Positions 2,513 to 62,061 of a stretch of 64,000 nucleotides of DNA are shown here, piece by piece (the first letter of the stretch is position 1; each line of letters begins with the position of its first letter). The DNA comes from Ptychodera flava (Eukaryota; Hemichordata; Enteropneusta; Ptychoderidae), in contig NC_091933.1 in assembly GCF_041260155.1 (NCBI RefSeq), forward strand, positions 4,007,001 through 4,071,000, in the 5' to 3' direction. Below the pieces are notes generated by a model. It was not told the origin of the DNA. It searched no databases and worked only from the letters and a program-made list of their open reading frames with translations. Position numbers and translations under genes: made by a program.

Positions 2513-4946
2513 CTATTTGTTCATAACTTTATACGCAAGAAACCATCCATCTTCATCGCCGAGGTACTTTTCTAATTTATACTTTTCCACACTTTTGAGA
2601 ATGCCTTCTTGCTTAAGTCTTGCCATTGTCGGCCCTTCCACGCAAGACGGACCATTAAAATCATTGGTAGTTATGGCGATGATTCCACCTATACATAGGA
2701 AAAGAAAATATTCCTTACATTTTCGTTCCGACTTTCAAGTTTAAAAAACTAAAAGTGTGACACATAACATGTGTCAATGTAATAAGGTGCAGTATCCAGC
2801 AGTACAGTAGTAGTTTTCAAACTCATTGTTTAGTCATAGACCACATAGACCACAATGTTCAGAGAACTGCTCGGAGCGAAAATGGCGAAAAATTGAGAAA
2901 ATAGTCGCAATCCTTTGATCAGATTGGACAAATCGTAGGAAATGATGGTTGAAACTATAATACACATTTTAAGTTATTTAGTATGGATAACAGCAGCACT
3001 AGCTATGTACTGAAGATCTGAATCGTAGTGGGTACGAAAACAATCTTTACACTCTGGTCGCAAAACTGTCGCACTATGCACAGCAAGTGCTCGTTATCAG
3101 TAACCTAGGGAAATGAGAGATACACTTGGCGCGATCTCTGTGTTAAAACAAAATAAAAAAAATTGTCCCTCACCTGGTTTCAGTACGCGAACCAACTCTG
3201 GGAGACATCTATCATCCATATGTCCACGCAAAAAGCCACCACTACAAATCACAGCGTCATAGATGTCTGAAACATAAAGAATATATGTTTTTCCCACTGG
3301 ATTGCATTTTCATTCGATCACGAAACGTGACAGTTTTTCCCTGTGGACAGCAAGCATCATACCGACCTAAGGTCATAGACCGTCAGCGGTCAGCAAGCAT
3401 CATATCGGCCCAAGGTCATAGACTGTCAGCGGTCAGTAAGTATCATATCGACCTGAGGTCATAGCAGGTGCCGCCAACTGGTAAATTTCATGAATTTCTC
3501 AAATCGTCACAAAACCTGTTTTGAAGGCTGATATACCGATTTTTCTTATTTTTGACCCTGACCTAAAATTTGGAGGGGAAAGTGAGAGCTGTTCGTAACT
3601 GCCCTCCACTGTATACGCTGAAAATGTGCCCTCCCACTGAATTTTGTTGCCCACTGCCCTCCGGTATCTACAGTCTGCCCGCTCCCCACTTCCCACAACC
3701 ATTCAAGCTCCCCACTGCCCTCTCCCCACTACTGAAATTCCCCATTGCCAACTAGATGCCCAATAGGCAACCCAGATCAACACAAAACCATGCAAGCAGT
3801 TAGCAGTATACCTTGGAACATTGCTCCCCCTCCCCCTACGTATTTCCGGTGCCCACTGTCAAAAATTTTCTCCCCGCCCGCTGAAAGTAATGAAATTTCT
3901 TCCCCGCCCACAGTAAATATCGATATTTTTTCCCCGCCCGCTGATTATTTTGAAATCTGCCCGCCCGCTGAAAAACTTCGCACGAACACCTTTTTGTACG
4001 AACAGCTTCGTTGGCGGCACCTGTCATAGACCGTTGGAAACACTCGTATACGTGTCAACCTTAACTATTGTTGTCTTTCGTGCAATTATGTTGTGAAAGG
4101 AAATCGCAAAGCACAGTCCCTCGTGGGCTATTAAGCTCTGAGACTATTCGCCCCATAGACGAGGGTTGTTTCTCGCTTCTGTACACTCGTCTATGGGGCG
4201 AATAGTTCCAGAGCTGAATAGCCCACGAGGGACTGTGCGCAAAGTATAAACTCTGCCTCTGGTTTCAATACTGAGAGTGACAGCGCTGTGAGATGACAGC
4301 TTTCGAGTGTATGAAACTTGCTGTTTATCATTGTCTTTTGAGGTTGTTGTGTCACGTATGTATGAAGGAGAGAGAGGTGAATTTTTTTTACAATATTACC
4401 ATGTCATATATTTACTCACCAGGTTCTACTCCCTCGATGGGCTCCGCTCCCAATGTGGCACAAATGATATTTGTGTAAACTTTCTTTTGCTCAGCCAATT
4501 TCAAACTCTCTTCTGACATGTCAACAGCATCAATATTACTGTATCCATGGCGTGTCAACTACCAAATGAAATTCAAAATGCGTTTAACCCTTCAACAGAA
4601 TGATCGGGTAAAATGCTGACCTTTTTCATAACAAAGTCGGACCTTTTCACAGAGAAATGGGGGTTAAGGCAATGTTCACTGGGTAGTTCTACTGTCGCCT
4701 ATTCTCCGAATAAGCCACGAAATAATTATAAGCTTGGTCGTGGGATGACGCTAAAACAATTCACAGAACCTATCCAGAAATATGGTGTTACATGATACTT
4801 TTACTGGTTAAATAAGTTATTAAATATCTTAGGAGGGCACTTCTTACTGGGAAATGTGATTCACAGTGACATTTTTCACAAACGACAGGAGAGTTTAAAA
4901 TGCGTTCAAAATGTAAACAACGCCAATTTTATGTCAGATTATGAGG

Positions 4947-4980
<34 letters not shown>

Positions 4981-7900
4981 TGCATTTTGCTTTATTTGCG
5001 TGTAAGTCAACGACTAATGCAGGTGTCATGTGACATCCATTTATGCAAATTCTATCAATCATAATGCAGATCTGAATACAATAACTCATTGCAAATACTG
5101 CAAGGCCATGTCCATGTTCAAAATTAAGATTTATATAAAAGTCAACTAAGTGCAGCGGCAAATGTCACGTGATAGAGAGGGCTTGCAACAAAGCGTAAGC
5201 TTAATGTTGTTACACGTCTTAATATTTAAATGTTGTAAAACAGCTTTTTCAAGGGCGACCAGAGACAATGCAGAGTATTAATGGTATGAGAATACGTTTT
5301 GTACATGTTAAGTAAGGTATATCTTGTCGAACAAACAGAGAATTATATATACTTATACTACAATCTGATATTTCAGTCTGGTAATGTTGCGGTCCCTGTG
5401 CGAAGGTTGTTATAATAAAGAAAATGTTCACGAAGTGTATTCCATGAGTTCATAACTTTCATCAGCTTTGTACGGCTGTCTACAATTTTCAACTCGACTT
5501 GGCATTTTCAGATCTCTTGAACGTGTTAATGTTTTACTTGTATACAGCGGATCTGTTTATGCGTGTCTAAAATCAGTATTTGCACTCCATACTTTATTAT
5601 TATTCATGCTTACACGATACCCAGCTTGGCTTGTCTTATTGTAAATCAAGCTCACTGCACTGAGGGCAATGAACAATTCCTATTACTTACATATTAGAGA
5701 TATAGCAAGTTTTCCAATATCATAATTTAACATTTAACAGTTAATAATTTAACAGTTACCTGCACTGAGACTACTAGTACCATGAAAAGTTTAATAATAC
5801 TTTTAGGTGAAATTCCAATATCATTATTGTTGTCCACATCTGAACTTTTAAATACTCTATTTGAATCAAGTACATCAATTATCAAACACTTATAAAAGCA
5901 CAAATTAATTTAGTTTAGCATTGTAAAAATTTATTCTTAATTTTCTCATAGACTCCAATATATAGTGAATCAACATTTCAGTGAAGTTCCAAAATCCAAT
6001 TTCTTGCACACATATTAACCTTTAACCATCCTAGGCTAACTAAGTACTTTAAAATGAAATATAAAATGTCTATAAATACACAGATTTTGATATTTTTATA
6101 TTGTAAAAATATTATTCATATTTTTCTCATAGACTCCCATGTACAGTGAATCTACATTTTGGTATAGTTTCAAATTCCAATTTCTGGCGAACACATCCAT
6201 TTGTTACACCCTAATCTAGTCAAGTACATTAATATCAATAATCGAGAGTACATAAATACAGGGGTTTACCTATTTTTGTATTGGAAAAAAATTACTCATA
6301 CTTGCTTCGTAGACTCCAATGTATAGTGGATGAATATTTTCAGTGAAATTCCATAATCAGATTTCTTGTACACATAATATGCACCTTTAACCATCATATT
6401 CTAATCGAGTACAATTATGTTGATTATTGAACGTCTGTATATGCACAAGTATACCAAGTTTTGCATTGGAAAAAAAATTATTCATAATTTTATCATTGAC
6501 TCCCATGTATAGTGGATGAACATTTTTGGTGAAATTCTAAGGTCAAACTTTTTGTCCACATGCCAGTTGTAACAACCCTATTTCATTTAAGTATATTTAT
6601 GTAAATTATCAAATATCTATAAATGCATAGATATAGTTTTGCATTGAAAAAGTATTACATCGTTTTCTCATACATTACCATGTATAGTGAATCAACATTA
6701 TCAACAGCTGATTTTTAATTAAATCCAAATATCAAAATTTTGTACACACACACTTGCGAAAAAATATTGCGATCCACCAGTAATTTCTGTCCAACCCCTT
6801 TGAGGGGTAATTTCAAAATTATAGCAAGTCAGAAGGGGAAATCTGAGCATTAACATCATGTGAGTTTGTAAGGAAGGTAATTTGAAAAAAATCTAAGCTC
6901 TTCGGTTTTTTTTTATTCTATCGCTCCATACTCCCCCGAGGTGTTTGTGTGTGCAGCTTTACTCTGAGTCAAGCAATGCAGGGGGGTCATGAAATTTTTG
7001 TCATCTTGAAAGGGGGGGTCATCAATATTTTGGCACAATGGGTAGGGGGGGGTTCACTTATTTTGACAGATTCGCAGGAAGAATTTGCCGGCCCACCCCC
7101 GGCCATATTAACTGAACACTCCCTAATTTGGGACAATTGGATTTTCATAAATCTCAAATTTCTCAAAAGTGTTAGGTGCCCTATAGCTAAATGTTGCAAT
7201 ATTACAAATTACTCATAAAAACAAGTGTATAACTTATAAAGAAAAGCAGATGAGCTTACATTTGAAGATTAAACCGACATTACTTCACAATTCAATTATC
7301 CCAAATTAGTTCCAATCGTGTTTTTTCATTAAAAACATTTCCTGCCGTAAAGTTATTTATAATGATATTTTGCTCGGATGACAAAAAATGTTTGAAATGC
7401 GTCTAAAACCGTGAAGAACCGTCTAAACCGTCTGACTCTAAACTGTCTGACTGCTTTCTTTATTATTTACAAGTCCTTATCTCCTCTCTGACCTGTGTAC
7501 ACATCACTCCAATTGCTCCGCAAACATTGCAAACATGCTAATCGGCTGTCCGTATCAGCGAATTAATTGATAGAGTCAACCCAGCCGTTCCACACATAGT
7601 AAAATATTTTACTACATGTGGGGACGGATGTGATGCTGACCCTATCAATTAATCTGCCGATACGGACAGACTATTGGCAATGTTTGCAATGTTTGCTGAG
7701 CAATTAGGCCTACAGTGGCGTGTATACAGGTTGGAGAGGAGATACGGACTTGCGTAGTAATAAAACAGTCTGACGGTTTGAAGTCGAAATCTTTGTTTGA
7801 AAAACCACCGTCAAAATTGATAAAATAAAATAAAATAAAAATAAAGTAAACAGTTGCACAAAGAATCCCACCCTCCCCATCCAGGGAACTTACCGCTTTT

Positions 7901-11500: not shown

Positions 11501-11563
11501 ACTTTCATCTGTCCCCTGTGATACAGGTGAGGCATTTTAGACATGTTAGGTCCGTACACATTT

Positions 11564-14364: not shown

Positions 14365-15161
14365 GGGAGCCGTCATTATTTACGGCACGGGGTCGGAGGA
14401 ATCGGGGGTCGCTTAAATTGAAAGCTACGAGGAGTGTTTGCTCAAAATTTGGAGAGAAAGAAGGGGGTTACTCAATTTTTGGTGCAAAATAAAATAAAAC
14501 ACCTCTTAGATTGCACTATCGCACACATCAACTTCTCAAAATTTTCGAATCGAGAGGGGAACACCCCTTCTCGTCCTCTTCTCCCTTGAGCCGTTCTAAC
14601 AGTATTACGTAGTGAAAAACTACATATCAAAAACATCTCTCAAATTGCACCATTGCATATATCATTTTCTCAAAACTTTCCGCAGAAGATAGGGAACACC
14701 ATCCTCTGGCATTTCCCCCTCAACCTATCGCGTGTTCTCCCCCTGTACTTTCAAATTCTACCCGGAGTCAGATATCCTATGGAAAACCTATGTCATGCAT
14801 GGTTCCCATCCAAATTAAACAATACTATATGGTTGGATTCTGATTATAGTGTGAGGTTTTATATTTATATTTCATTGTGACTTTGTGAATTTCGTTTTGT
14901 TGGTTTAAACTTTTCAGCCATCATGAGATAACAGATGATAATCTAGCAAGGTACAACATGATTTGCAAAGTCTACTATTGCTGTATTTTTGTAAATTTTA
15001 CTGATAAAAATATTGATATTTACTTCAGTCAAATAAAATGTCTGTGTTGAGAGGAGGGGTTACTAAAATTCATCATGGTTGGGGGTGTTTTGGGTTTATT
15101 CGAAATTTCAGTTTCCGATGAAATTCCTCCGACCTTCAGGCCATTAAAAATTATGGCTCGC
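14365..15161. mobile_element. PIF/Harbinger-like non-autonomous element, copy 1
   Basis: The ends are GGGAGCCGTCATTATTTACG and a diverged inverse (GGCCATTAAAAATTATGGCT), followed inward by a shared CGGAGGAAT block. TAA flanks both ends (14362-14364 and 15162-15164). The 3-bp TWA duplication and GG-starting termini are typical of PIF/Harbinger. The 797-bp interior carries C/G runs and no recognisable transposase. Confidence 0.75.
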
Positions 15162-15449
15162 TAAGAAGAGCGAGGGATTGAAATGAAATATCACAAACTG
15201 TTACGCAAAAGTACATGCGCAGTTTGTAACAATCGACAGAATCAACAAACGATCAATACAATAGGGACAAACCTTCTAGTCCATATTAATAGTATCCAAA
15301 GACACCCATATTATGAAATTTAGTAATTTCAAAGTGGTTGATGTATACTTGGGGCATCAAATTGCAAGAAGATATTGCAAACCCCAATGAGGATCATCCG
15401 TAAGCTTGAAATTGTTTATACTATTCTGTGTGTTGTATCACCCCAATAT

Positions 15450-16030
15450 GTAACAATTAACCCAATATGTAATACTAACCCAATATGTAATAACACTTAA
15501 CCCAATATGTAATACTAACCCAATATGTAATAACACTTAACCCAATATATAATACTAACCCAATATGGAATAACACTTAACCCAATATGTAATACTAACC
15601 CAATATGTAATAACACTTAACCCAATATGTAATACTAACCCAATATGTAATAACACTTAACCCAATATGTAATACTAACCCAATATGTAATAACACTTAA
15701 CCCAATATGTAATACTAACTCAATATGTAATAACACTTAACCCAATATGTAATACTAACCCAATATGTAATAACACTTAACCCAATATGTAATACTAACC
15801 CAATATGTAATAACACTTAACCCAATATGTAATACTAACCCAATATGTAATAACACTTAACCCAATATGTAATACTAACCCAATATGTAATAACACTTAA
15901 CCCAATATGTAATACTAACCCAATATGTAATAACACTTAACCCAATATGTAATACTGACTCAATATGTAATAACACTTAACCCAATATGTAATACTAACC
16001 CAATATGTAATAACACTTAACCCAGTATGT
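15450..16030. repeat. 40-bp tandem array, about 14 units
   Basis: Each unit is two half-repeats, CCCAATATGTAATACTAA and CCCAATATGTAATAACACTTAA, and the period is exactly 40 bp with very few changes between units. Such homogeneity suggests recent expansion. The array is part of the left end of the 15434-22769 element. Confidence 0.95.
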
Positions 16031-16744
16031 AATAAAACCTGGGATATAATACTAAGCAAAATAATACAAAAAATGCCTAACAACCATCAACACATCCCTG
16101 TGTGGCCAAAACACTTCAAAACTTTAGACGAAAGCGAGGAACATGTATTGAGAACAGTAAACTTGCAGAAAAGCTAAGAACGCCCAGGTACCATAATCAA
16201 GCCGTCGGCGAGCTTTAAATTTTAATTTTAATTGTTTCTTAATTTTCATACAGCGGAAAATACCTGAAAACACGCACATTTCTTATAATCATTCAGCAAT
16301 AATTTCATGACGGAAAGAAAAGCTTCACCAATATTGCTAGTTCCTGACCTTACAACAATCAGAAAATGACAGCAATGGTTCAAATTTTTTACTTGTTTGT
16401 TTACATGCGGAACGCTTATGGCTGTCAACATTTATGAAACCAAACACAATTTATGGTAAATATGAAAGCGACTACGGATATATAAATTTGATGTGTAATA
16501 TCACAACATTATGGGCAAATAAACGGGAATATTATCCAGACATCAATGTGTCCACAGATTAATAAAGAGAAGAAACTATACATAGGCCTAATAGCTTTGA
16601 AAGGCTGAAGTGACCAACTTCGATTGAATCATAATACTGGCCTTACGTTTATAAGCCTAGGCTTACTTTATGGGATAGAAAGAAATATTCATTTATCTAT
16701 TTTTGGTATTCTCTCAAAATAAGTGCCACACTCAATATTTTTTT

Positions 16745-16990
16745 GATTAACTCAATATGTAATTAACCATCGATTTTGGGTTAACCAAATATGTAATAAA
16801 CCTTCCATGCATTGTGTGTAGACAATTTATATCATGTTGGCTTATTCAAATATGTAATAAAATCCCCATAGAGAATGCGTTATTACATATTGGGTTAACC
16901 CAATATGTAATAAAATTTCCAATATAGAAGGCATGGAAATTTTATTACATATTGGGTTAACCCAATATGTAATAAAGTCCCCGCAGAGAA
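16745..16990. repeat. Palindromic copies of the CCCAATATGTAA repeat
   Basis: Inside the large element the repeat recurs head to head, as in TTACATATTGGGTTAACCC followed by AATATGTAA, twice within 250 bp (about 16880-16915 and 16940-16976), with weaker single copies from 16745. These perfect palindromes of about 28 bp could extrude as hairpins. Confidence 0.8.
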
Positions 16991-19559
16991 TGCATGGAAG
17001 TTAACAATAAAGTTTTGAAGTTGAACTAACTGTTGCAAATATTACAGCTCTTCAAATGTTATATAAAAATTAAATTCAACAAATAAAATGGAAATATAAA
17101 AACTGGTATTTATATTATTACCACTAGTACTCTATTTTCATTGGTTATTCTATGTTCTGCAGAAAGTTTCATTTTGTCGTATTGTACTCACTGTTTGCAG
17201 ACACATTTGTTGGATTTCGCATGTCACAAATCTTGTAGTCTTTCAGGCACGAAACAGCCAGACTTAAAGGTATGGACATCGGTCCCAGGGCCTAGGAGTG
17301 GCACATGTAAAACAATGTGTGATCTTTGCGTCAGAGGCGGAATAAACGATGAGCGTATCTATTTATCCAGGAAATCTTAATCCCGACTGCTATGTTTGTA
17401 CGCACATTGAGCCAGTCGACGTTAGGGACACAAAAAACAACACGAGGAACAAACAGACAGGGGTTTTGAACAAAATGTAGCCGGTACTTCACCGATGTCT
17501 GTAACTCCAAACATGAAAATATTCGTATCTTGACGCACTTTGAACATAGCTCGTAACAAGGACAGTGGAAAGCCTTGGAACTACGTGTACAACTATAACA
17601 GCTACTCATGTAGTTTGTGAACAGTGAAGATTTTTCCTATCAACAAGTTTGACAGATGGTGGACTAACCTTTCCTACTGCAATTGTTATCTCCCTCGATT
17701 CAGCACAAAATTTTCGTATGGACTGTTGATGCGGTGTTTACAGTTGTTACGTGGTGGTAAATCCTAGTCGTATTTACGACTGCTGCGTAAACAGTCACTG
17801 AATAAATTTTGCACAGCATTTACGAGCACTGGATATTTTTACCGTTTTTAATCGAAAACCGTCCGTATACGCGTATGACAGTGACAAAACAACACAAAGA
17901 ATCTGGTAATTGTTACTGAATTACTTTGACCAAAAACAATTCACCCAAATGCCGAACGGTGATCATACAGAACTCTGCAGGTTTCTGGACTAAACGACCC
18001 CAAACCGACCGGATCTCAGTCAACTGTGCCGGGCTCGACGTCTACTCTATCAGCGTCAACTCAACTTTCACTCCAGACAACTTTACTCACAAACTGGGAA
18101 TATACTAAATTTACCTTGAAAAAAATTCAAACTGTGTATCGTATTGAAAAAATCTTACCGGGGCCACGGAACAAATTAAAAAACCAACAATCCCAACAGA
18201 AACAGTGGAATGATCATTAGTGTGTAAGGTCGCTGTATTATATGTCAGGGTAAAAAAATCTAGTTTTGAAATTTCTGGACGGTACAAAAGGCGGGGCAGA
18301 ATTAGACAAGATTACGACCAATGTGTTACCGCCGATGGTACATAACGTTCTGTTGATAGCAGATAGTTCGGTGTCCAGTGAGACACTATTCCCAATATAC
18401 CACGGCTATTGATTTGAGCTGCCTCCGATCGAAAATTTTCTATACAAAGACATGATATCAATAATTTTGCGAGATTATAAGTACCCGCTGTCTTCTCGCC
18501 AAATAGCTGCGATCAAGATCATTATGATAGAAGCAATTGACCGCCGAACACCTGCTTGCTGTTCTTATACACAACGTGTAAAAATGATTATTCCTGCTGA
18601 GAAATACGACAGCAAATATTGCAACGTGAATTTCTTACTATTTTCCTCGCAATGGTTTTACATCTGTGTCTATTTTAACACGGTCACTGGACCATTTCTG
18701 ACGATTTTTACAAACAAAGAATCAGTTCACACTCATCGTGGGAACACATTGCAAAGACGTTCAAAAAATGTTCATCACATAAAGATTACCGTTATCCCCG
18801 TTTCAAAGATGTAGGAAATGTATAATGTGTTGTTCATCTTGAAAAATCCCGAACTGCAGCCTCTAAATACAACTTCCCGACAACTTTACAAGCACACTCC
18901 GGTCATCACATGACGGTTGTAACCGTACATGTGCTGCCGCCAATGGAGAATCAAAAGACTTCAAATCAAAAGTAAAAAAGTATAGAAAAATATCAATATC
19001 CAAGCATTGTAAAACAGAGTAATTTTGATAAGGTCAATTTATTGTATATTATAAAAAATATCCAGGCCACTCGGAACAGCGTAAGATAATGATCTCACCC
19101 GTTCGAATACTACACTCACACAGGGTAAAAATGGGAACTCAGAACGTTATATACTGCTTCCGCCAAGCGAGTCCGCTTAGCTAAAGACGGTAAAATGACT
19201 ATAATTATTATTGCTAGTCTTTGTAAATTTTGCCGAACATTCGTTAGTAGTTGTCGAATTACTTGAGTTTGTCCGAAAACTATTTCAGTGAATGACGTAA
19301 GTTTCAAGACACCTGAGTGTCGGGATAGCAAAATCAGTCACAGACAATCGAGGAAGAACATAAGAGTCTATTAATCTGCCAATTAAATGAATCCTAAGTT
19401 ACTATGAAAGTAAAAAGGTAATGTTGTGTCCTGGTTGGGAAAGAAAAGTTGATTAAGATTTCAAAAAAACGTCAGATAATATTAGAGCAATTTAGTAAAA
19501 ACAAGCTCAGAAAAACGTATAGAGAAGAACGACATCACGGCGATCTTCAAACCTTTTAT
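16991..19559. other. Unassigned interior of the large TIR element
   Basis: Frames are short, and the longest (18452-18814 plus, 120 codons) resembles no family I recognise. Stretches near 17730-17900 and 18000-18060 are CpG-rich. Confidence 0.3.
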
Positions 19560-20460
19560 CATGTTTCAGTCTGAACGGTCAACATTTGATGCTATAATCT
19601 ATGTCAAGTGTCTCTTTTTGGTCAAATCTGACAGAGATGAAGCAATCGCGATTTAGTTTCATCGCCCCGACCCGACAGAAAATAATGCAGCTCATGGGCA
19701 CCTGTATAATCGTGGCGTGAACGTATCCAATGGCCGTCCACTGCATGGGCCATTGACCGTGCATCGCCAGCAAACAACGGTTTTGGACGTCACGAGAGCA
19801 TTTTCCGCAGCCTGTGAGCGATTGAGTGATTTGGGTTGGCTGCATTGATCGGAATCGAGTCGATTTCGGCCGAAACAGTTCGTAAAGTAGTTTTTCGCGT
19901 TCCGTCCGAATTGGATCCGCATGTTGCCGGTTTTGTCCATGGCAATCAGCAGAGCTGTGGTGGGAGGCCGTATAAGGCCGGGAACACACGGCATCGTATA
20001 CGCAGGGCTAGGCGACAACACTCTCCAAAAGAGATCTATCGTAAAATATCGTACTGCGGTCAACATACACATCACCCATTCATAGGCCTGGAGGTACATA
20101 GATCAACAAACAAACAGGGAGAGGCAATCTGCTTGAAACCATGAAATAGTCCGTTTGTGTCTGAACTCATCTGAGACTCGTGTTCAGTAACCGTTGGTCA
20201 AGTATTTTGCTCAGTAGTAAGAATCGTTTATTCATTGTTGACATCGTAATCGATCTGATGTACACAACAAATGTTTGATCGTTTTGCACCTTTGCGCGTC
20301 CCATCGTGATTGGCAGCTGTTTGAATGCTTTCATCTATTGTTTGTTGGACGCTTCGAACACAGCATCGAAGCAGTTTTGGCATCAAAAATCAACTTAAAA
20401 TGGAAAAAGAGAGAATTTCGCCAACAAGGTGATGCCACAAGTATTCACAAAACGTAATAT
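19560..20460. other. CpG-rich block with overlapping open frames on both strands
   Basis: Within the AT-rich interior of the 15434-22769 element this block is unusually rich in CpG. It keeps two long overlapping frames on the minus strand (19579-19989, 136 codons; 19692-20099, 135 codons) and one on the plus (19836-20144, 102 codons). None resembles a family I know. Low AT content alone favours long frames, so coding is not claimed. It may be a promoter island or a fragment of another transposon. Confidence 0.4.
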
Positions 20461-20817
20461 GTTGGAACAGTGCTTTAATTTACACCATGGTTGTTGAAAG
20501 ATCCAGATTTTCGGGAGCATTCGTTGACGCTGTTATCATGTGCCACTCATGTTGGATTATGAATGCCCAGGGAGATAGGGGGTATTTATAGGCTCCACAG
20601 TGTATCTTCAGTATATCAACTTCACGGTCTCTATCGATTCCATGTACCTCATTAATTAATGTTATGTACTTTGAAAACATGTTCAATTGCTATGTCACAA
20701 GCACTTGAAGGTTAAGAATTTATTTGAAGATAATGAAGAAATGTCCTGAGGATTGGACGTGAAGTGATTTTGTATGCGAATGTACGATTGAGCTAAATAT
20801 TATTACGTATGGGGTTA

Positions 20818-22098
20818 GGAGCCGTCATTATTTACGGCCGGGGGGGGGTCGGAGGAATTGCTTTCGAAACTCCAAAATTTCGAGTAACCCCCCTGCCAAC
20901 CATGACGTGTTTGAGTAACCCCCCCCTCTCTGCTAAAGAAAATTTGAGTGACCCCCTCCCCCCAAAAAAAATTGGGAAAGTTGAATATCTATACAGTAAA
21001 ATGGATTGCTGCTGCGACAGGCCCTGTACAGACCCTGATTAAACCCTGTGGTATAGGTCTTTGTCGGAAGGAGGTTCCAATTGCTGTGGTAGGGGCTGAT
21101 GTACAGGTCTGTATCCAGTGCTCTGGTGACAAGCAGTTATTCTGTAGGGTTTTTTTCAAGAGGGGGAAGATGTGGTGCGAAAGCACCACAAGAGACCGCA
21201 TAAGCGGTCGCGGGGGAGGTCAGGAGGGGGTGTCCCCCCTCCTGCCATTGGAGCTTTTGAAAAATAGAGGTTAAAATGGTGTTATTTGGTGGCACTTGGG
21301 GAGTATTTTTTTCGTATAAAAAACTCAAAGGAAAATAAATCTGAGACAGTATTCCAAAACTTATATTCAGTTCACTGATTTCAACTATATTTTTTGAAAC
21401 TGAAAAAATAGCGACAGACATACATTTATTCACATTTATTATTTATTATTATTTTCCTGCAATAAAAGATGGGTTTGTTGTCAAGGCATTCAACTGGTTT
21501 TAAACTTTATAGCATCAGAATAAGCTTGCTTTACACATTTTCCCCTATCGGTAACCTATACAATGTAGAATATAGAAAGCAGACGTTTCTCATCAATGAT
21601 CAGGCAAGTATATCAATCTTTAATCAGGAAATACTGAAAAATGTACTCAGTACTAGCCTCTAACATAAGGCTTGCCACGTCGAATAGCTGATCATTCTCG
21701 TCTGAAGATCACAATAACGTGAAACACATAGTGTAATGAGATTTTAGTTTTTACTTGAAACCACCTGTATTAGGAGCATCATGGCCAGGGCTAGAGCAGG
21801 GACTCATGATCAAAGGATGGTGAGTTCGAGCCCCGGCATGGCTGTGGTGTTGTGTCCTTGGGCAAGGCACTTATTCCTCATTGTTTCTCTCCCACCCAGG
21901 GTGATGGGTACCTGGTAGGACAGAGGTTGTTATGTGTGCGTTTAGCTCTGCTGCGCTTATTGGCTGCACATGTGAGCTGTTGTCTGCTCCCCAGGGAGTT
22001 GAGTGGTATCATATTAGGTCCAGTGACCAGGGGTAATAATAATTGTAAAGCGCCTGATCACATCTACTTGTGGATATGTGCGCTATATAAGAACCAAA

Positions 22099-22131
<33 letters not shown>

Positions 22132-22373
22132 TATGTGTGTGTGGTGTGTGTGTGTGTGTGTAAACAAATACCGGTATGAATATACATATCTTTACTATTA
22201 TTGTTGTATTAATTCGTAACTCAACTAAATGCTTCAATACATGTCAACAAAATTGAGTAGCCCCCCCTTTCTTGTTCTCCACTTTTGAGCAACCCCCCTT
22301 GTAGATTTCGATTTTTTGAGTGACCCCCCTCAGATTCCTCCGACCCCCCCAGGCCATAAATATGACGGCTCCC
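20818..22373. mobile_element. PIF/Harbinger-like non-autonomous element, copy 2, with a SINE inside
   Basis: The left end GGAGCCGTCATTATTTACGG and the right end (CCATAAATATGACGGCTCCC) are inverted. TTA flanks both sides (20815-20817, 22374-22376). The flanks together rebuild one unit of the 40-bp repeat, so the element landed in the TTA of that unit. It shares its ends with the copy at 14365, contains runs of G and C next to the ends, three tetraloop hairpins (21171-21244) and a SINE (about 21777-22130). Confidence 0.8.
21777..22130 (+). repeat. tRNA-derived SINE with L2/CR1-like tail
   Basis: A Pol III B box (GTTCGAGCCCCGG, about 21829-21841) follows a head resembling a tRNA A box (about 21781-21800). 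TCCTTGGGCAAGGCACTT comes next and is a common SINE body motif. The 3' part (GTAAAGCGCCTGATCA, GCGCTATATAAGAACC) ends in an (ATT)n tail at 22099-22125. That tail type matches the V/HE1-like SINEs mobilised by L2/CR1 LINEs. The SINE lies inside the Harbinger-like element and so is younger. Confidence 0.8.
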
Positions 22374-22376
22374 TTA

Positions 22377-22769
22377 GGATTATATATTGGTTTGAATGTT
22401 ATTACATATTCATTTAGTATTACAAATTGGGTCGAATATTATTACTTATTAAGTGAAATGTTCTTACATATTGGGTCAGTATTAAATATTGGGTAAAAAA
22501 AAAACTCAAAAAAAAAACTTTGAAAAATTATCAAATTTTAGAAATGCTGCGGGTTTTGAAGGGGCATGATCATGGTTGCTATGCATACTTTAGTCTTATT
22601 TTGGTCAGTATTATATTCCAAATTCAGTTTTATTACATATAGGGTTAGTATTACATATTAGGTTAAGTGTTATTACATATTGGGTTAGTATTACATATTG
22701 GGTTAAGTGTTATTACATATTGGGTTAGTATTACATATCGGGTTAATTATTACATATTGGGGTGATACA
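22377..22769. repeat. Right-end inverted copies of the 40-bp repeat
   Basis: From 22630 to 22769 the array reads TATTACATATTGGGTTAG and its partner half in the opposite orientation to the left end, stopping at GGGGTGATACA. Positions 22377-22497 hold older, diverged units. An A-rich run (22496-22520) and non-repeat sequence lie between. Confidence 0.85.
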
Positions 22770-23283
22770 TGTGTGACAGTCAAAGTTGACTGCTAGAGCA
22801 GTGAAAATTGTTCTTTGGTCACTAGGGTAATCTCCTTCAAAATTTTATATCAATCGCTAATGATTTCACTGTAAAGTCCTTTGACACTTCGATTTCAAGG
22901 AGACTTGATACAAGGGCCTACGTGGATTTTTTAAGGGAGCATTCGTTTTTTATGGGGTAGGTGGAAATCAGGTCAATGATTGAAGGGGATGTCAAATTTA
23001 TGAAGCTTTGTTGATAGTTATTGGAAGAAAAGCAACAGAATTGACTTTAAAGTATGTAAAACAGAATATTGACATGTCTTTATTATGTCTGACAGGTGAT
23101 AACAAGCAGAAAAGAGCACTTTTATTCACAAAAATACAATTTTCAAGTTGACAAAGAGAAATAAGTTCACTATACAACTTTCATAATACCTTGAATACTG
23201 GGAAAATAGCTCAAAATTTTGAAAATATGGTGTTATATAAAGTGTTTGCAAAGATTTTTGGACTTTGTAATTGCATTTAAACA

Positions 23284-23880
23284 AGAAATCTGATTTTGGA
23301 ATTCCACTAAAATGTTGAGTCACTATATGTAATGTAACCTATGAGGATTTTGTGAACAACGATTTTTTTTAATTTAAAACTAGCTTAATCTGTGTATTTA
23401 CAGGTGTTTGATTATTGATATTAATATACTTAATTAGACTTTAGTGGTTACAGGTGCATGTGTGTGCAGGAAATTGATTTTGAAATTTCACAGAAATGTT
23501 GATTCACTATATACTGTAGTCTATTAGGAAACAATAATTTTTTTACCATACAAAACTAACTAAATCTGTGTATTTCTAGATATTTAATATTGATATTAAT
23601 GTACTTGATTTAGACTAGGGTGGATATAGGTGTTTGTATGTGCAAGAAATTTGATTTTGGAATTTCACTGAAATGTTAATTCAATAAACATTGTAGTCTA
23701 TGAGGAAACTGAATTTTTTTACAGACCTTAATCTGTGCTTTTATAAATGTTTGACAATTGATATAAATGTACGTGATGAGAATATTATGTTTGATAAGAA
23801 CAGATGTGAACAACAAATATTTTATAGGAGTTTCACCAAGTGATTATTTGTAAAGTTCAAAAGAATTCTTTGAAAATCCA
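23284..23880 (-). repeat. About 180-bp satellite, about three units, inverted relative to 5.7-6.7 kb
   Basis: Units start near 23284, 23471 and 23645 with GATTTTGGAATTTCACTGAA and AATGTTGATTCACTATATA, the reverse complement of the 5.7-6.7 kb unit. It sits inside the Harbinger-like element that begins at 22935. Confidence 0.82.
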
Positions 23881-36400: not shown

Positions 36401-39400
36401 GGAAATTAGTGCAGGAATGTATGAGTTACAGCTTTGGACATGCAAAATTTAGATCTGAATGGCCCCCAGACAGCCATATTTGATTGTATCAAAAAATAAT
36501 TTCATAAGCATGTTTGAGTCACAGTGTATTGTCCTTGCACTAAGTTTGAATGAAACTGGTTCATATTAAAGCTGCATAATGCCCATAGATATGAAACAAA
36601 ATGGCAGCCAGGCAGCCACATTGGATCGTATCCAAAAAATTGGCGTGTGTCCGCCTGCGTAGTGTATTACCCTTCTACCAAGTTTGAAAGAAATCAGTTC
36701 AGGTGTGTCTGAGATATCTCTGTAGACGCACTGATGCATGCCACTCAATCTATAAGTTCCTGCCTGACTTCATCGGAAGCGGGGACTAAACAACACTAAA
36801 ATTTTTGATTACATCTAAACTGTCTTTTAATTTGATACACAGTATTTACACTGTTGTGACTTACAGGCCCTATACTCATATTCAGCCTTTCTGCTATCAT
36901 TAGCTTGTTCACTGAGTATTAACACGTGAATAAGATAATCTAGTGACACTCATTCACTTTTTGAATTGAGTGTTGAAAGAGCTATTACTTTGAGAGAACT
37001 CATTACCCAGGATGCATCACAATTTAATCACTAACAACTCCATACATTACTTATCAGTGTGCTCTCTAAGAGTCTGAGGGGAAGTGAAAAAAATTTTTTT
37101 TGAGTCAAGCTGAAGAAAACTTGATTTGCTGTGTGCCACCACATGCATGAAAATGGTATATAACTAAAAGTCAGCAGGTGTAAGTATAGCGCCCTCTATG
37201 GTTGTACGTCTTTCTGATTCCTGGTACTCTCCATTGTGAGTCAATGAGAAGACAATGAAAACAACAATGGTGGCCTCCTACCCTGTCGATCCATCAGCAA
37301 GATAAGTCTATTTGCACACAGTATCACAGAGGAGATTTAAAGAAATAGCATATACAGATATTTTTTCACCTAAAAACTACAGGGAAACATGTTATCTGAG
37401 TAAATTGTGAATCTGGTGAGCATTTCTAGTCATTGGTGGGCTTTTTACAGCTGCATCAGTGACACGTCAGATAACTTATTATTTCAATGCGTCTGGCGGG
37501 TTTGTCCTGCGTCATGATGCATCAAATTGGCTTAGCAGGCACACTGGTAATAATTTTATGATAATACCCCATAATTCAATCTATAACAGACCCATACCAG
37601 TCTGTATATGAAATCTTGTAACAAGCACCTGCGTACTTTCCTGCAAACATAGTTGCGCCTGCTAATCCAATATGATGTGTCACTGACTCATGAGTTATTT
37701 GACCTAAGAAAATTACATGTATAAGTACAGGACTGACTCAAGGAAACTTCCAGCAATCAATTCAAAGAGTTTGGAACCTAGACCTAGAGGTCTCAATGAA
37801 ACATGCATGGATTCTCATGACAGCATAAGCACCTTATGATGGTGGTGGTGGAGCTTCATCAATGATTCGTAGCTGCCCTAAAGCTCACTCAAGCAACACT
37901 GTGATGGCCAGTACATTAAACATAGTTAAATACTGAACACCTGGACTCACTTATTATTCCATTCTGTTTAGAAACCCCAATCATGGCATAGCCTCATAGT
38001 TTCTTCAAGTATACAGCGGACAAAAAGTGGCTAATTTTCACCCTCCACGCACAAACTCTGAACACACCTATAAATGATCTATAATGAAATACCACAATCT
38101 ATGATACATGAAAATGGCTATACATACCTTTTGAAAATGATGTATTACTTTGTCAACATCTTCTGTTTTGAAATGCTTACTCAGTACTGGTTTCAATTGA
38201 TCCCAAAGGGCAGTTGTCTGTGGTGGTATTTTTTGAAAATTTCCTGATTTTTCGTCCTGAGACCTCTTGACCACCAAATGAAGCTTTGTTCCTGGTCCTA
38301 TGTTGTAGTCCCCAAGGCTCTGACCATCTTCAGGACAGAAAATGGATAGTTTTCACATTAGTATAAAACAGTGTACTGATAACATTATTGCGTTATTCAT
38401 CGTTTTTCAATACGGTTTTGCTGTTTAAACAGTAACTGTTTCTGATTCAGTGTTTTTGTTAACCTGTTCACCCTAAAAATTCCCTATGAACAGGTCAACA
38501 GTTACCATTGCCAACAATGGGTTTGGGCCAATCCTTTGTGGGGAAAGGGTTAAGGGTGGCACCTAGAAAAATTTTACATGGGAGTCAAAAGTATTTCCAC
38601 TACCATTCACATATGTCCCTAAAACTCAAGTGAAAACTGATTATTCAGCGACCAGCATCAATGCTTACACACCTTCCATATAATTGAAGGAACCTTATGT
38701 TAGGAAAGAAGGCATTCTCGCAAAAGTCTGGTTATTATATTTCTTGTCACAACAAGTCTGTGCAACAGAAAAACATTTTGTGTGGGGTTACTACACTAAG
38801 GTTTTTATGACCAAGTAATTAAGGGGGCACTGCACCCAACACTGTTTTTTTCGATCAAAATGCAAATATTCATATGATTTTAATGATTTTGTTAACCCAA
38901 GATTAAAATATCTGTTGGGTTCACCTTTTAGCTTGTCAAGCAGTTGTAAGTTGCATGATAAACAAGTGTTTAAGTTTATGCAAACGTATGTAAATCACCC
39001 AATTTCCTGGCTTCTATTTTCCCCCATTTCAAGATTTCCAAAGAATTCAACTCCATTCTGGCCGGGTCAAATTTTCTGAAATTCTCACATTATGTACTTT
39101 AAATGCTCTAATACAAACACACTATTTTGTTTGGCAATAAAGTTCTCACATTTTGAATTAGAGTCATTTTAATTTTACTAATTGTGTTTATAATAACTTT
39201 TTTGATTGTCAGTCTTTCAACCCATGCCATTTTAAAATGAGTTACATAATGCAAAATAAAATAGTCATTTTTGTCTACATATACTCATTTCAAGTGAAAT
39301 ATTACATTTCAGAAAATAGTTTCAAGTTTTTAAATTAATTTTTTTAGTAGTACCAGAATTGAGTTTTTTTACTGCAAATATACACCCATTCATCCTTCGA

Positions 39401-39847
39401 GTAAACTACTGCTACCAAACTAAACTTTAAATTCTCTGCTTTTTGAAAATATATAGTATGAGGGGGGTTCCCTTGTCATGTTAGATAAAAAACATTCCTT
39501 TGAAAAAACTGTGTTAGCAACGTGCAGCTCCACCTTACGTTTCCAAAGTTCCTGAATATACCAGACAGTGTTCTGGCCACATTCCCTCTCATCTACTGAG
39601 ACAAAACAAAAACTGAGTCTTAAATTTAAAGACCCTGGTGAGGTTACCGTTATGTGTTGGTGTTTGGAAAAATAACAGGTTTCCTTAAAGTAGTGAATGG
39701 TGCATATGTGCTATAGTATTGCAGTTTCATTGATAGCTTACCTGCTAGTGTTTTACCTCTGAATACTAGTCTCTGTTGATCTACAGGAACATCTAATTCT
39801 CTTGCTATTAATTCTTTGACAGATGAAATTGAGTCTGTGGCTGTTAC
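28349..39847 (-). CDS. UBL4A: UBL4A / Get5-like ubiquitin-like protein, first coding exon not found
   Basis: Three minus-strand coding exons are clear: 39847-39742, 38327-38128 and 28459-28349, with GT-AG junctions and continuous phase, ending in TAG at 28351-28349. They give 138 residues; human UBL4A has 157, so about 16 N-terminal residues (first beta strands of the ubiquitin fold) are missing. The first two exons carry the rest of the ubiquitin-like domain (DVPVDQQRLVFRGKTLADG, then LGDYNIGPGTKLHLVVK). The last exon carries the C-terminal Tugs helix (LSLDDLERIA), which in mammals docks on BAG6. In animals the UBL4A-BAG6-GET4 complex hands tail-anchored membrane proteins to GET3/TRC40. Introns after the first and second found exons are 1.4 and 9.7 kb, the larger one packed with nested transposons. 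The missing exon should end in phase 0 between 39.9 and about 42.8 kb. Homology is secure from the ubiquitin-like core and the C-terminal helix together. Confidence 0.88.
30090..30930. repeat. Inverted repeat around an AT-rich core in the UBL4A intron
   Basis: AGGATTATGTCC, ACCAAGTTGAACA and TTAGGTATGTCAT (30098-30142) recur inverted at 30866-30915 with about 90% identity. The core holds loosely repeated blocks such as ATCAACATCTGTRCC and ACCAAGTTTCAACAAATGTGA. Confidence 0.65.
32982..34262. mobile_element. 1.28-kb TIR element nested in the 4-kb hAT-like element
   Basis: CAGTGTTCTCCCCAGG and its exact inverse close the element. Subterminal GCGTAGCGG motifs occur at the left (33010) and three to four times at the right (34178-34240, including an inverted one). 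No flanking duplication is visible. The interior holds a 51-base C run (33443-33493). Confidence 0.72.
33443..33493 (+). repeat. Uninterrupted run of 51 C
   Basis: The run is pure C on the plus strand and G on the minus. It makes spurious poly-Pro and poly-Gly frames. Its true length is likely uncertain because sequencing slips on such runs. Confidence 0.9.
36375..36790 (+). repeat. About 145-bp tandem repeat, nearly three units
   Basis: GTGTATTACC/GTGTATTGTCC starts units near 36376, 36523 and 36662, each followed by AAGTTTGAAAGAAATCAGTTCAG-like sequence (three diverged versions) and AGCCATATTTGAT-like sequence. It ends at GAAGCGGGGAC/TA. Confidence 0.65.
37055..37546. mobile_element. 492-bp TIR MITE (CAGTGTGC ends)
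   Basis: CAGTGTGCTCTCTAAG and inverse (CTTAGCAGGCACACTG) bound the stretch. Outside bases are loosely alike but no exact duplication is seen. A similar end, TTAGAGGGCACACTGG, occurs alone at 29802-29817. Confidence 0.55.
38459..38553. mobile_element. TTAACC-ended MITE, 95 bp, diverged
   Basis: TTAACCTGTTCACCC on the left and GGGAAAGGGTTAA on the right. The inner CAACAATGGGTTTGGGCC resembles the 47973 copy. It lies in a UBL4A intron. Confidence 0.6.
38823..39534. mobile_element. 712-bp Harbinger-like MITE, copy 2
   Basis: It matches 1403-2114 along its whole length (shared blocks such as TTAACCCAAGATTAAAATAT and GAGTAAACTACTGCTACC). The ends GGGGGCACTGCAC and GTGCAGCTCCACC are inverted. It lies in the UBL4A intron between 38328 and 39741. 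TTA-type flanks fit PIF/Harbinger. Confidence 0.78.
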
Positions 39848-60300: not shown

Positions 60301-62061
60301 GGTCTGTTTGTAGCTTAAAGACAGCCACTTTTTGTTTCAACTTTGAAGCATATTTCTGTCGGAAATGTAAAACAGACAAGATTCAAAAATATCAAACATC
60401 TCAAGACTGTCTTTGTTTGAGCATTTGAAGTTTCAAACACATTATTACAAAAGCAAAACTGCTTGTTGTTTCGTACCTTTGTCTTTCACATAGAATGGAT
60501 GTTCTAATTCACATTCTGTGACAATATAAGGCTGATTGGGTAAATCTGGACTCATTGTTAGTGTTATGATATTGTCCTTGTGGGGGTTGGGTTCCTCAAT
60601 CTTGACGATTCGCAGACCATTGGGTGCATACCCTGATGTTGAAGACTGACCCCTGCCCTCACTGTCTTGATGCTGATTGGCTTGTGCTGCTAGAGTTTCA
60701 TTGTTGCCAATGTCTTCAGCCAATCGCCAATCAGTTTTTGGCCCTGATGTAAAATGCACTCTTGTTCCTGCATAATTAAGAGAATTACAATGTTAGATCG
60801 ACACTTTTCAAAGACTGGCAGGTATATACCTGACACTTGAATAGATGCCAAGTTTTGATAAATCCTATAAATAAATTTAAAATAATTCAGAAAAGTGCTG
60901 CCACTCTGCATTTGGTCATGAGGCAAACCATATAGATGTAATTGCTAGTATAGTGTCTTCATTTAGTTTTGAAGCAAATGGCTATTTCAAGAACATCACT
61001 GCTATACAGGAACTGGCTGTAAATTGAACCATTTGTAGTGAGAATTATCTTGGTTTCCTTTGCACTATGAGGACATTACCTTTCAGAAAACATTGCCACA
61101 CAGCAGTTGGCCAGGAATGGGACCAGGTACCACTGGAACTTTCACTGACTTTGGGTGACGCTGGAAATGGTGATGATGATGTAACTCTGGATTCGTCTTC
61201 AACAAGAGCTTCATTGCTGGTTGAAATTGATGACGAAGGGTAGATAACTTCAAAATGATCAATAAGGGCTGGTGGAGGACTTGGGGATCTTGGTGGCTTG
61301 GCATAGCTATGTAGTGATCTATCAATAGTGGATACTGAACTTCTGCAATAGAAGGAGAATTGATCAGTCAAAATAAATTATGCATCTCTGAGGTTAATAA
61401 CAGTGCTGCCTCTGAAAATATAATACTGATGGTGAGAATTCTCCTTGGTGTGTAAAAAGTTTAACATGTATTGGTATTGGGTTTATGCAAAATATTCTCC
61501 TGACAAAATCAGAGATCTTTTATGTTGAAAGTTTACTGATTATACATGGGAAACTGTGAAGTATGGTGGATGCAGACTGTAAATTGACATTTACTCATAG
61601 TTGATGTGCCCTTTATGCACTAAGAAGCTTATGCAACAGACAAAATTCATCAGATCACTACAAACCGGAGCATGTATATACCGGTACACCTTGGAGTTTT
61701 GATTTAAGGAAAAATTCTTTGAAGTATTCATAAAGAAGGCAATACATAACATCATTATTTTACTTTTCTTAAGCATACCTTGAGAGAGATGTTTTCTGAA
61801 GCAAGGGACTTTGTGGACTTGTTGCAATGATGGCCAACTCAGTTAACCAATTCATGTTGGTTGGTTGGCTGTGGTTGGTGCCAGGTTCTGTCTCCTCACT
61901 GCTTGACATGGGGGAATGGCTTGACGTTGGTGAATTGGCACTTTCATGAATTGTCGTCGATGGCTCCTCAAAGTACGAAGCGCTTGTGTCTATCATTAAA
62001 GCATGAGGGATGTATTTCATTTTCTTTGGAGTTTCCATCGAAGGTAGATCACTTGTTTCAG
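57394..62061 (-). CDS. HBP1: HBP1 (AXH plus HMG-box transcriptional repressor), N-terminus missing
   Basis: Minus-strand exons are 62061-61779, 61342-61080, 60767-60477, 59736-59592, 59264-59013, 58146-58002 and 57402-57394, all GT-AG with matching phases, giving 461 residues and a stop. Human HBP1 has 514, and the first exon seen here opens in mid-codon, so about 50 N-terminal residues lie upstream. NWLTELAIIATSPQSPL and SLHSYAKPP match conserved HBP1 segments. The AXH domain spans WPTAVWQCFLKG to FTPMDSSAV and includes CELEHPFYVKDKG and YGIPCCELECGDMC. The HMG box begins at KRPMNAFMLFAKKFRLEYTQ and continues as AISVILGDRWKKMKVEER. It ends in a basic tail, CWKRKRSSS. HBP1 represses Wnt and cell-cycle genes; AXH recruits SIN3 and the HMG box binds DNA. 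The last exon adds only two residues before TGA. Intron 58147-59012 carries a MITE. Confidence 0.93.
57721..57943. mobile_element. TTAACCCTTT-ended MITE, 223 bp
   Basis: TTAACCCTTTGAGTGCC at the left and CCCTCAAAGGGTTTA at the right. It lies in the last intron of HBP1. Confidence 0.7.
58490..58908. mobile_element. Second copy of the TTAA MITE, in an HBP1 intron
   Basis: It runs in reverse to 43766-44306, sharing CTCAACTCTGCTTGCAGC and AAGAGCGACTTTGTCCC. It is shorter (419 bp) and its right flank has decayed from TTAA to TTTA. It lies between the two HMG-box exons. Confidence 0.75.

What the first reader, a model, noticed from the sequence alone, without database searches (positions are those of the whole stretch)
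15434..22769. A 7.3-kb element whose inverted ends are made of a minisatellite
The same terminal motif (TGTATCACCCC) closes both sides in inverse orientation and leads straight into copies of a 40-bp repeat. Non-repeated sequence inside the array also matches in inverse. So the repeat is part of a terminal structure, not a chance satellite. Foldback elements with ends of sub-repeats are known in flies, but I know of no described family with this CCCAATATGTAA unit. No transposase is seen, so what mobilised it is open.
Basis: partly seen in the sequence, partly recalled or inferred. Interest (0 to 1): 0.7.

Follow-up and report, generated by a model that had tools for sequence, protein, structure and literature searches.

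The report
Foldback-like DNA transposon, no transposase
A stretch of animal DNA is bounded by two mirror-image arms built of the same short tandem repeat, as in the known 'foldback' class of jumping DNA; no gene for moving itself was recognised in this copy, and it looks like an ordinary new member of that class.

Summary
TGTATCACCCCAATATGTAA[C/T]AATTAACCC opens at 15434 (+) and closes at 22769 (-). The outer 170 nt of the arms match in inverse at 90%, including an irregular first spacer. The left array has 14 full 40-bp units, the right 3. Inside the arrays, 48-49 nt of non-repeated sequence also match in inverse, better than any of 314 window controls or 1000 shuffles. The flanks carry an in-register TGTGT repeat (chance about 0.2-0.3%), but it is low-complexity and not significant if stray bases are allowed. 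No Pfam match was found in six frames of 16040-20817. Best reading: a non-autonomous foldback-like DNA transposon, moved in trans by a transposase that binds the repeated CCCAATATGTAATA core. That kind is known from flies, nematodes, plants and sea urchin. The superfamily is unresolved. No genome was held, so other copies and the element's own empty site were not tested. New member of a known kind; modest interest.

The parts
15429..15433 (.). candidate target site duplication, left copy (TGTGT)
   Evidence: exact 5-bp match in register with 22770-22774; 7 bp with one mismatch; not significant if asymmetric ends are allowed
15434..15460 (+). left terminus: TGTATCAC cap plus the irregular first unit (core spacing 19 instead of 18 or 22)
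   Evidence: same cap and same atypical first spacer on both ends
15461..16020 (+). left outer array, 14 full 40-bp units (18 + 22 bp half-units), 11 of 14 identical to the consensus
16040..16087 (+). non-repeated part of the left arm that has an inverse counterpart in the right arm
16751..16975 (.). left inner block of scattered units in both orientations; two copies of a perfect 34-bp palindrome (16880-16913, 16942-16975) predicted to form a long hairpin (no shuffled control run)
17010..20780 (.). unique interior, no Pfam match in six frames, no second copy in the window
20801..20814 (-). right inner array, unit on the far side of the nested element
20818..22373 (.). nested element, 1556 bp, ends GGAGCCGTCAT / ATGACGGCTCCC, TSD TTA (20815-20817 and 22374-22376; TTAGGA if its ends are unequal); holds a SINE-like stretch
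   Evidence: joined flanks restore the phase of the array it entered
22378..22493 (-). right inner array, degenerate units with one phase slip
22572..22620 (-). non-repeated part of the right arm, inverse counterpart of 16040-16087
22623..22742 (-). right outer array, 3 full 40-bp units (1, 0 and 4 mismatches to the left consensus)
22743..22769 (-). right terminus, TGTATCACCCCAATATGTAATAATTAA read inward
22770..22774 (.). candidate target site duplication, right copy (TGTGT)

Best explanation
A non-autonomous cut-and-paste DNA transposon with long composite terminal inverted repeats (foldback-like). Each arm has an 8-nt cap (TGTATCAC), an array of 18/22-bp half-units sharing the core CCCAATATGTAATA, a short non-repeated stretch, and a second, decayed block of units. 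Shown by sequence: the arms, their order, and a second transposon that later landed in the right inner array and split it. Suggested only: it entered a TGTGT-containing site as one unit. Inferred: a transposase made elsewhere binds the caps and uses the repeated cores as extra binding sites, as Galileo's THAP domain does. Inferred: the left array grew and was homogenised by slippage or unequal exchange (11 of 14 units identical).
For: 170-nt inverse match of the outer arms at 90% starting at the very ends. Same irregular first spacer on both ends. Non-repeat inverse homology inside the arrays, 0 of 314 window controls and 0 of 1000 dinucleotide shuffles as good. 14-mer core confined to the element at up to 2 mismatches. 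In-register TGTGT flank repeat, chance about 0.2-0.3%. Right inner array continues in phase across the nested element: 40 of 50 bases, 0 of 4522 controls as good. In Galileo, binding of secondary sites in the TIR tandem repeats was tested by EMSA (PMC3688188, passages).
Against: A single copy: no second copy in the window and no genome to search. The TSD is low-complexity; with stray bases allowed, 61 of 200 random flank pairs are as good. The cap alone is not rarer than chance in the window. The left and right inner blocks differ in layout. The 3.8-kb interior has no recognised transposon signature, so host DNA between two separate insertions is not excluded.
Confidence: 0.75

Rival explanations
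1. Two separate short repeat-ended elements (or solo ends) inserted in opposite orientation, with 3.8 kb of host DNA between them.
For: The interior has no Pfam match and CpG observed/expected of 1.07, like the DNA to the left (0.65-1.13 in the 1-kb steps between 7.5 and 15.5 kb). Inner blocks differ in layout, and the left inner block is itself palindromic, so each arm might be a small foldback.
Against: Within the element the exact TGTATCAC cap occurs only at the two outer ends; two complete elements would need four, though inner caps could have decayed. The candidate TSD joins the two outer ends. The arms run cap, array, same non-repeat stretch in the same order.
Confidence: 0.13
2. Not a transposon: an inverted duplication of a minisatellite by a repair or replication error.
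For: The repeat is a true minisatellite, and inverted duplications of repeats occur (recalled).
Against: Both ends stop at the same cap, and beyond it only 11 of 50 bases agree. The outer arms are 7 kb apart, with no long inverse match found in the interior. No unit at up to 2 mismatches lies outside.
Confidence: 0.07
3. A Helitron/Helentron-type element with an internal minisatellite.
For: Such elements (DINE-1 and relatives) can carry tandem repeats (recalled; PMC4067079 seen only as search listing and start of abstract).
Against: Here the arrays lie in long inverted arms at the very ends, with a possible TSD; rolling-circle elements lack both (recalled).
Confidence: 0.03

Closest known systems
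Tm1 (Mutator/Foldback family of root-knot nematodes, PMC3169594, passages)
   Same: Composite TIRs: short terminal motifs, then a variable number of short tandem repeats (mostly 14 bp), unequal arm lengths, non-autonomous members without transposase.
   Different: Tm1 has 8-10 bp (mostly 9) TSDs in 45 of 53 elements, a different repeat, and asymmetric terminal motifs; here the cap is symmetric and no 8-10 bp TSD is seen.
Galileo (P superfamily, Drosophila; PMC3688188, passages)
   Same: Long TIRs with tandem repeats that hold extra transposase binding sites; foldback-like.
   Different: No sequence comparison with its TIRs was run. Its TSD is 7 bp (recalled); here 7 bp match in 6 of 7. No P transposase recognised.
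Tetris (Drosophila virilis, PMC4079207, passages)
   Same: Foldback layout with flanking, repeat-array and inner domains; no transposase found; repeats of variable number.
   Different: About 220-bp repeat, 8-10 bp TSDs.
Rehavkus (Mutator-related; PMC6446971, passages)
   Same: A minisatellite associated with TIRs in animals.
   Different: Described as a minisatellite before the 3' TIR, with 9-bp TSD and a PHD-finger transposase; neither TSD nor transposase found here.
Ginger2/Tdd (PMC2836005, passages)
   Same: Ends beginning TGT, and 4-5 bp TSDs.
   Different: Ends follow TGTNR; here the fifth base is T. Its preferred target RTATAY is not the target here; the words tandem and subterminal do not occur in that paper.

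Membership tests
Foldback-like elements (structural class) | long TIRs composed of short tandem repeats | tested here: met
Foldback-like elements (structural class) | arms of unequal length through differing repeat number | tested here: met
   14 against 3 full outer units
Foldback-like elements (structural class) | dispersed copies in the genome | not testable with these tools
   no genome held; none elsewhere in the window
Mutator superfamily (incl. Rehavkus, Phantom, Tm1) | 8-11 bp TSD | tested here: not met
   in register 8 bp match in 0 of 8, 9 bp in 5 of 9, 10 bp in 1 of 10, 11 bp in 5 of 11; none of 8-11 bp within the allowed mismatches with up to 20 stray bases a side
Mutator superfamily (incl. 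Rehavkus, Phantom, Tm1) | MULE transposase | tested here: not met
   no Pfam match in six frames of 16040-20817; expected for a non-autonomous copy, so weak
P superfamily / Galileo | 7-8 bp TSD (recalled) | tested here: inconclusive
   TGTGTGT against TGTGTGA, 6 of 7; 8 bp 0 of 8
Ginger2/Tdd | ends TGTNR | tested here: not met
   ends TGTAT; pattern from PMC2836005
Ginger2/Tdd | 4-5 bp TSD | tested here: inconclusive
   TGTGT, low complexity
Helentron | no long terminal inverted arms and no TSD (recalled) | tested here: not met
   170-nt inverted arms

The most novel reading that the evidence does not exclude
A foldback element that belongs neither to Mutator nor to P but is moved by a retrovirus-integrase-type transposase (Ginger/Tdd-like): symmetric TG...CA ends with a 5-bp TSD. 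That would show repeat-built arms evolving in a third transposase lineage. The fifth terminal base departs from TGTNR, so it would have to be a divergent branch.
Probability: 0.07. Interest if true: 0.5.

Novelty: new member of a known kind. Interest (0 to 1): 0.3.

Why it matters
It adds to the foldback-like elements a repeat unit that I did not find in print: four short strings of it were searched in open-access papers, 5 papers held one of them, and by title none concerns a transposon. Repbase and subscription journals were not searched. It preserves a readable history: one array nearly uniform, its partner shorter and more decayed, and a later insertion that splits an inner array. If copies exist in the genome, it would help test whether repeat-built ends arise independently in different transposase lineages.

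Tried and rejected
Viral contigs: 0 hits for two cores in tandem and 0 for the 20-nt end. Prokaryote contigs: 0 hits for two cores; 5 stretches with a single exact 18-mer. By my own arithmetic (no call) chance gives about 7 in 257 billion bases on both strands at equal base frequencies, so these were not read and not counted as relatives. Coding: 7 of the 57 open frames listed, and six full frames of 16040-20817 with stops as X: no Pfam match. The nested element was not searched for coding. The interior's CpG level looked foreign at first, but similar levels occur through much of the DNA to its left, so this was dropped. Rfam, whole window at gathering scores: 0 matches. Literature: searches (9 papers, 9 listed; 54, 20 listed; 28, 20 listed; 8; 1; 3; 507, 10 listed) gave general foldback papers; I saw no described element with this repeat among the listed rows. 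Letters of the neighbouring SINE-like stretch: 0 papers. In one search a fixed 40-bp frame gave 5, 20, 18 and 17 mismatches for the right inner array, because that array has a phase slip; one search tests the junction in one phase instead.

Full report
Observation. The window holds one 40-bp minisatellite at 15451-16034 (14.6 copies, 97% matches) and a shorter inverse one at 22626-22761 (3.5 copies, 92%). Both are closed on the outside by TGTATCACCCC, which has no other match in the window within one mismatch. The 8-mer cap TGTATCAC alone occurs once more, at 11518, as chance allows (3 found, 3.24 expected). The outer arms match in inverse over 170 nt at 90% without gaps. Read inward, the ends are TGTATCACCCCAATATGTAACAATTAACCCAATATG... 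and TGTATCACCCCAATATGTAATAATTAACCCGATATG..., sharing the cap and a first spacer unlike the later ones. Outside the caps 11 of 50 bases agree, as unrelated DNA would.

The match goes beyond the repeat. Just inside the arrays, 16040-16087 and 22572-22620 match in inverse (82%, 49 columns). The score of 51 was reached by 0 of 314 control stretches of the same window, both strands, and by 0 of 1000 dinucleotide shuffles (best 37); the direct orientation scores 18. So the arms are inverted repeats in the order cap, array, non-repeat. The core 14-mer at up to two mismatches is confined to the element.

Anatomy. The left outer array has 14 full units, 11 of 14 identical to the consensus; the right has 3, with 1, 0 and 4 mismatches. 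Each 40-bp unit is two half-units of 18 and 22 bp sharing the core. A second, decayed block lies deeper in each arm. On the right it has one phase slip and is split by a nested element. On the left it is rearranged, with units in both orientations and two copies of a perfect 34-bp palindrome; the single strand is predicted to fold into a long hairpin, without a shuffled control.

At 20818-22373 lies a 1556-bp insertion with inverted ends (GGAGCCGTCAT...ATGACGGCTCCC) and, as read from the sequence, a TTA duplication. With its flanks joined and one TTA kept, 50 bases across the junction match the 40-bp consensus in one phase at 40 of 50; 0 of 4522 control stretches do as well (best 29), and the two unjoined borders reach 23 and 27. 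A relative with similar ends (134 columns at 77%, 89 at 74%) lies at 14365-15161 with flanks TAA. A 3-bp TWA duplication is typical of PIF/Harbinger elements (recalled, no call). The foldback-like element itself is therefore about 5.8 kb (7336 minus 1559).

Boundaries. In exact register, the 5 bp outside both ends are TGTGT; 7 bp agree in 6 of 7; 8, 9 and 10 bp agree in 0, 5 and 1. Random pairs of places in the window give an exact match of 5-10 bp in 0.2% of cases; given the left flank, 0.28% of places match. If the ends may carry stray bases, 61 of 200 random pairs do as well as the best here (TGTGTG). The TSD is suggestive, not proof.

Interior. 17010-20780 has no second copy in the window. 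Seven of its open frames and six frames of 16040-20817 have no Pfam match. Its CpG observed/expected is 1.07; much of the first 21 kb lies between about 0.45 and 1.25, while most of the DNA from 23 kb on lies at 0.1-0.35, with higher stretches near 30.5-36 and 41-43.5 kb. So the level is not foreign to this window. Signs of the host: an AXH-domain open frame at 60448-60792 above Pfam's cut-off, and an NF-Y-type histone-fold match near 47.4 kb just below it. I take the host to be an animal (AXH and NF-Y together with the SINE-like DNA; inference); which one was not determined.

Mechanism. The layout fits a transposon whose ends hold many copies of a transposase binding site. In Galileo the THAP domain binds sites inside the TIR tandem repeats (PMC3688188, passages). 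No protein is known here, so mobilisation in trans is inference.

Comparison. Foldback elements are reported in Drosophila, rye, Arabidopsis, sea urchin and Chironomus (PMC4079207, passages), with ends of about 14-bp repeats in nematodes (Tm1; PMC3169594, passages), and a minisatellite is reported in Rehavkus (PMC6446971, passages). Different transposases lie behind such elements: P in Galileo, MULE in FARE and Tm1. Mutator membership fails on TSD length. P is undecided. Ginger2 fails on the fifth terminal base (PMC2836005, passages). I file it as foldback-like by structure, superfamily unassigned.

Limits. One copy, no genome, no empty site for the element itself. The chief rival, two insertions with host DNA between, is disfavoured because within the element exact caps occur only at the two outer ends, but it is not excluded.

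Noticed in passing
14365-15161 and 20818-22373: Two elements with similar inverted ends (GGAGCCGTCAT type) and apparent TSDs TAA and TTA, probably PIF/Harbinger-type non-autonomous elements (name recalled).
   Followed up: partly
about 21780-22110: SINE-like stretch with a (TTA/ATT)n tail inside the nested element (recognised from memory); a paper search for short strings of it found nothing.
   Followed up: partly
5793-6703 and 23273-23850: An AT-rich repeat (tandem at 23376-23722, period 176) occurs in two places in opposite orientation, the second 0.5 kb beyond the element's right end.
   Followed up: no
1399-2115 and 38819-39535: A 717-bp dispersed repeat, 78% alike, both copies beginning TTAAGGG.
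   Followed up: no
4111-4238 and 7434-7785: Two self-complementary stretches (83% and 76%), hairpin MITE-like.
   Followed up: no
window, 1-kb steps: CpG observed/expected is a mosaic: about 0.45-1.25 over most of the first 21 kb, mostly 0.1-0.35 beyond 23 kb, with higher stretches near 30.5-36 and 41-43.5 kb.
   Followed up: partly
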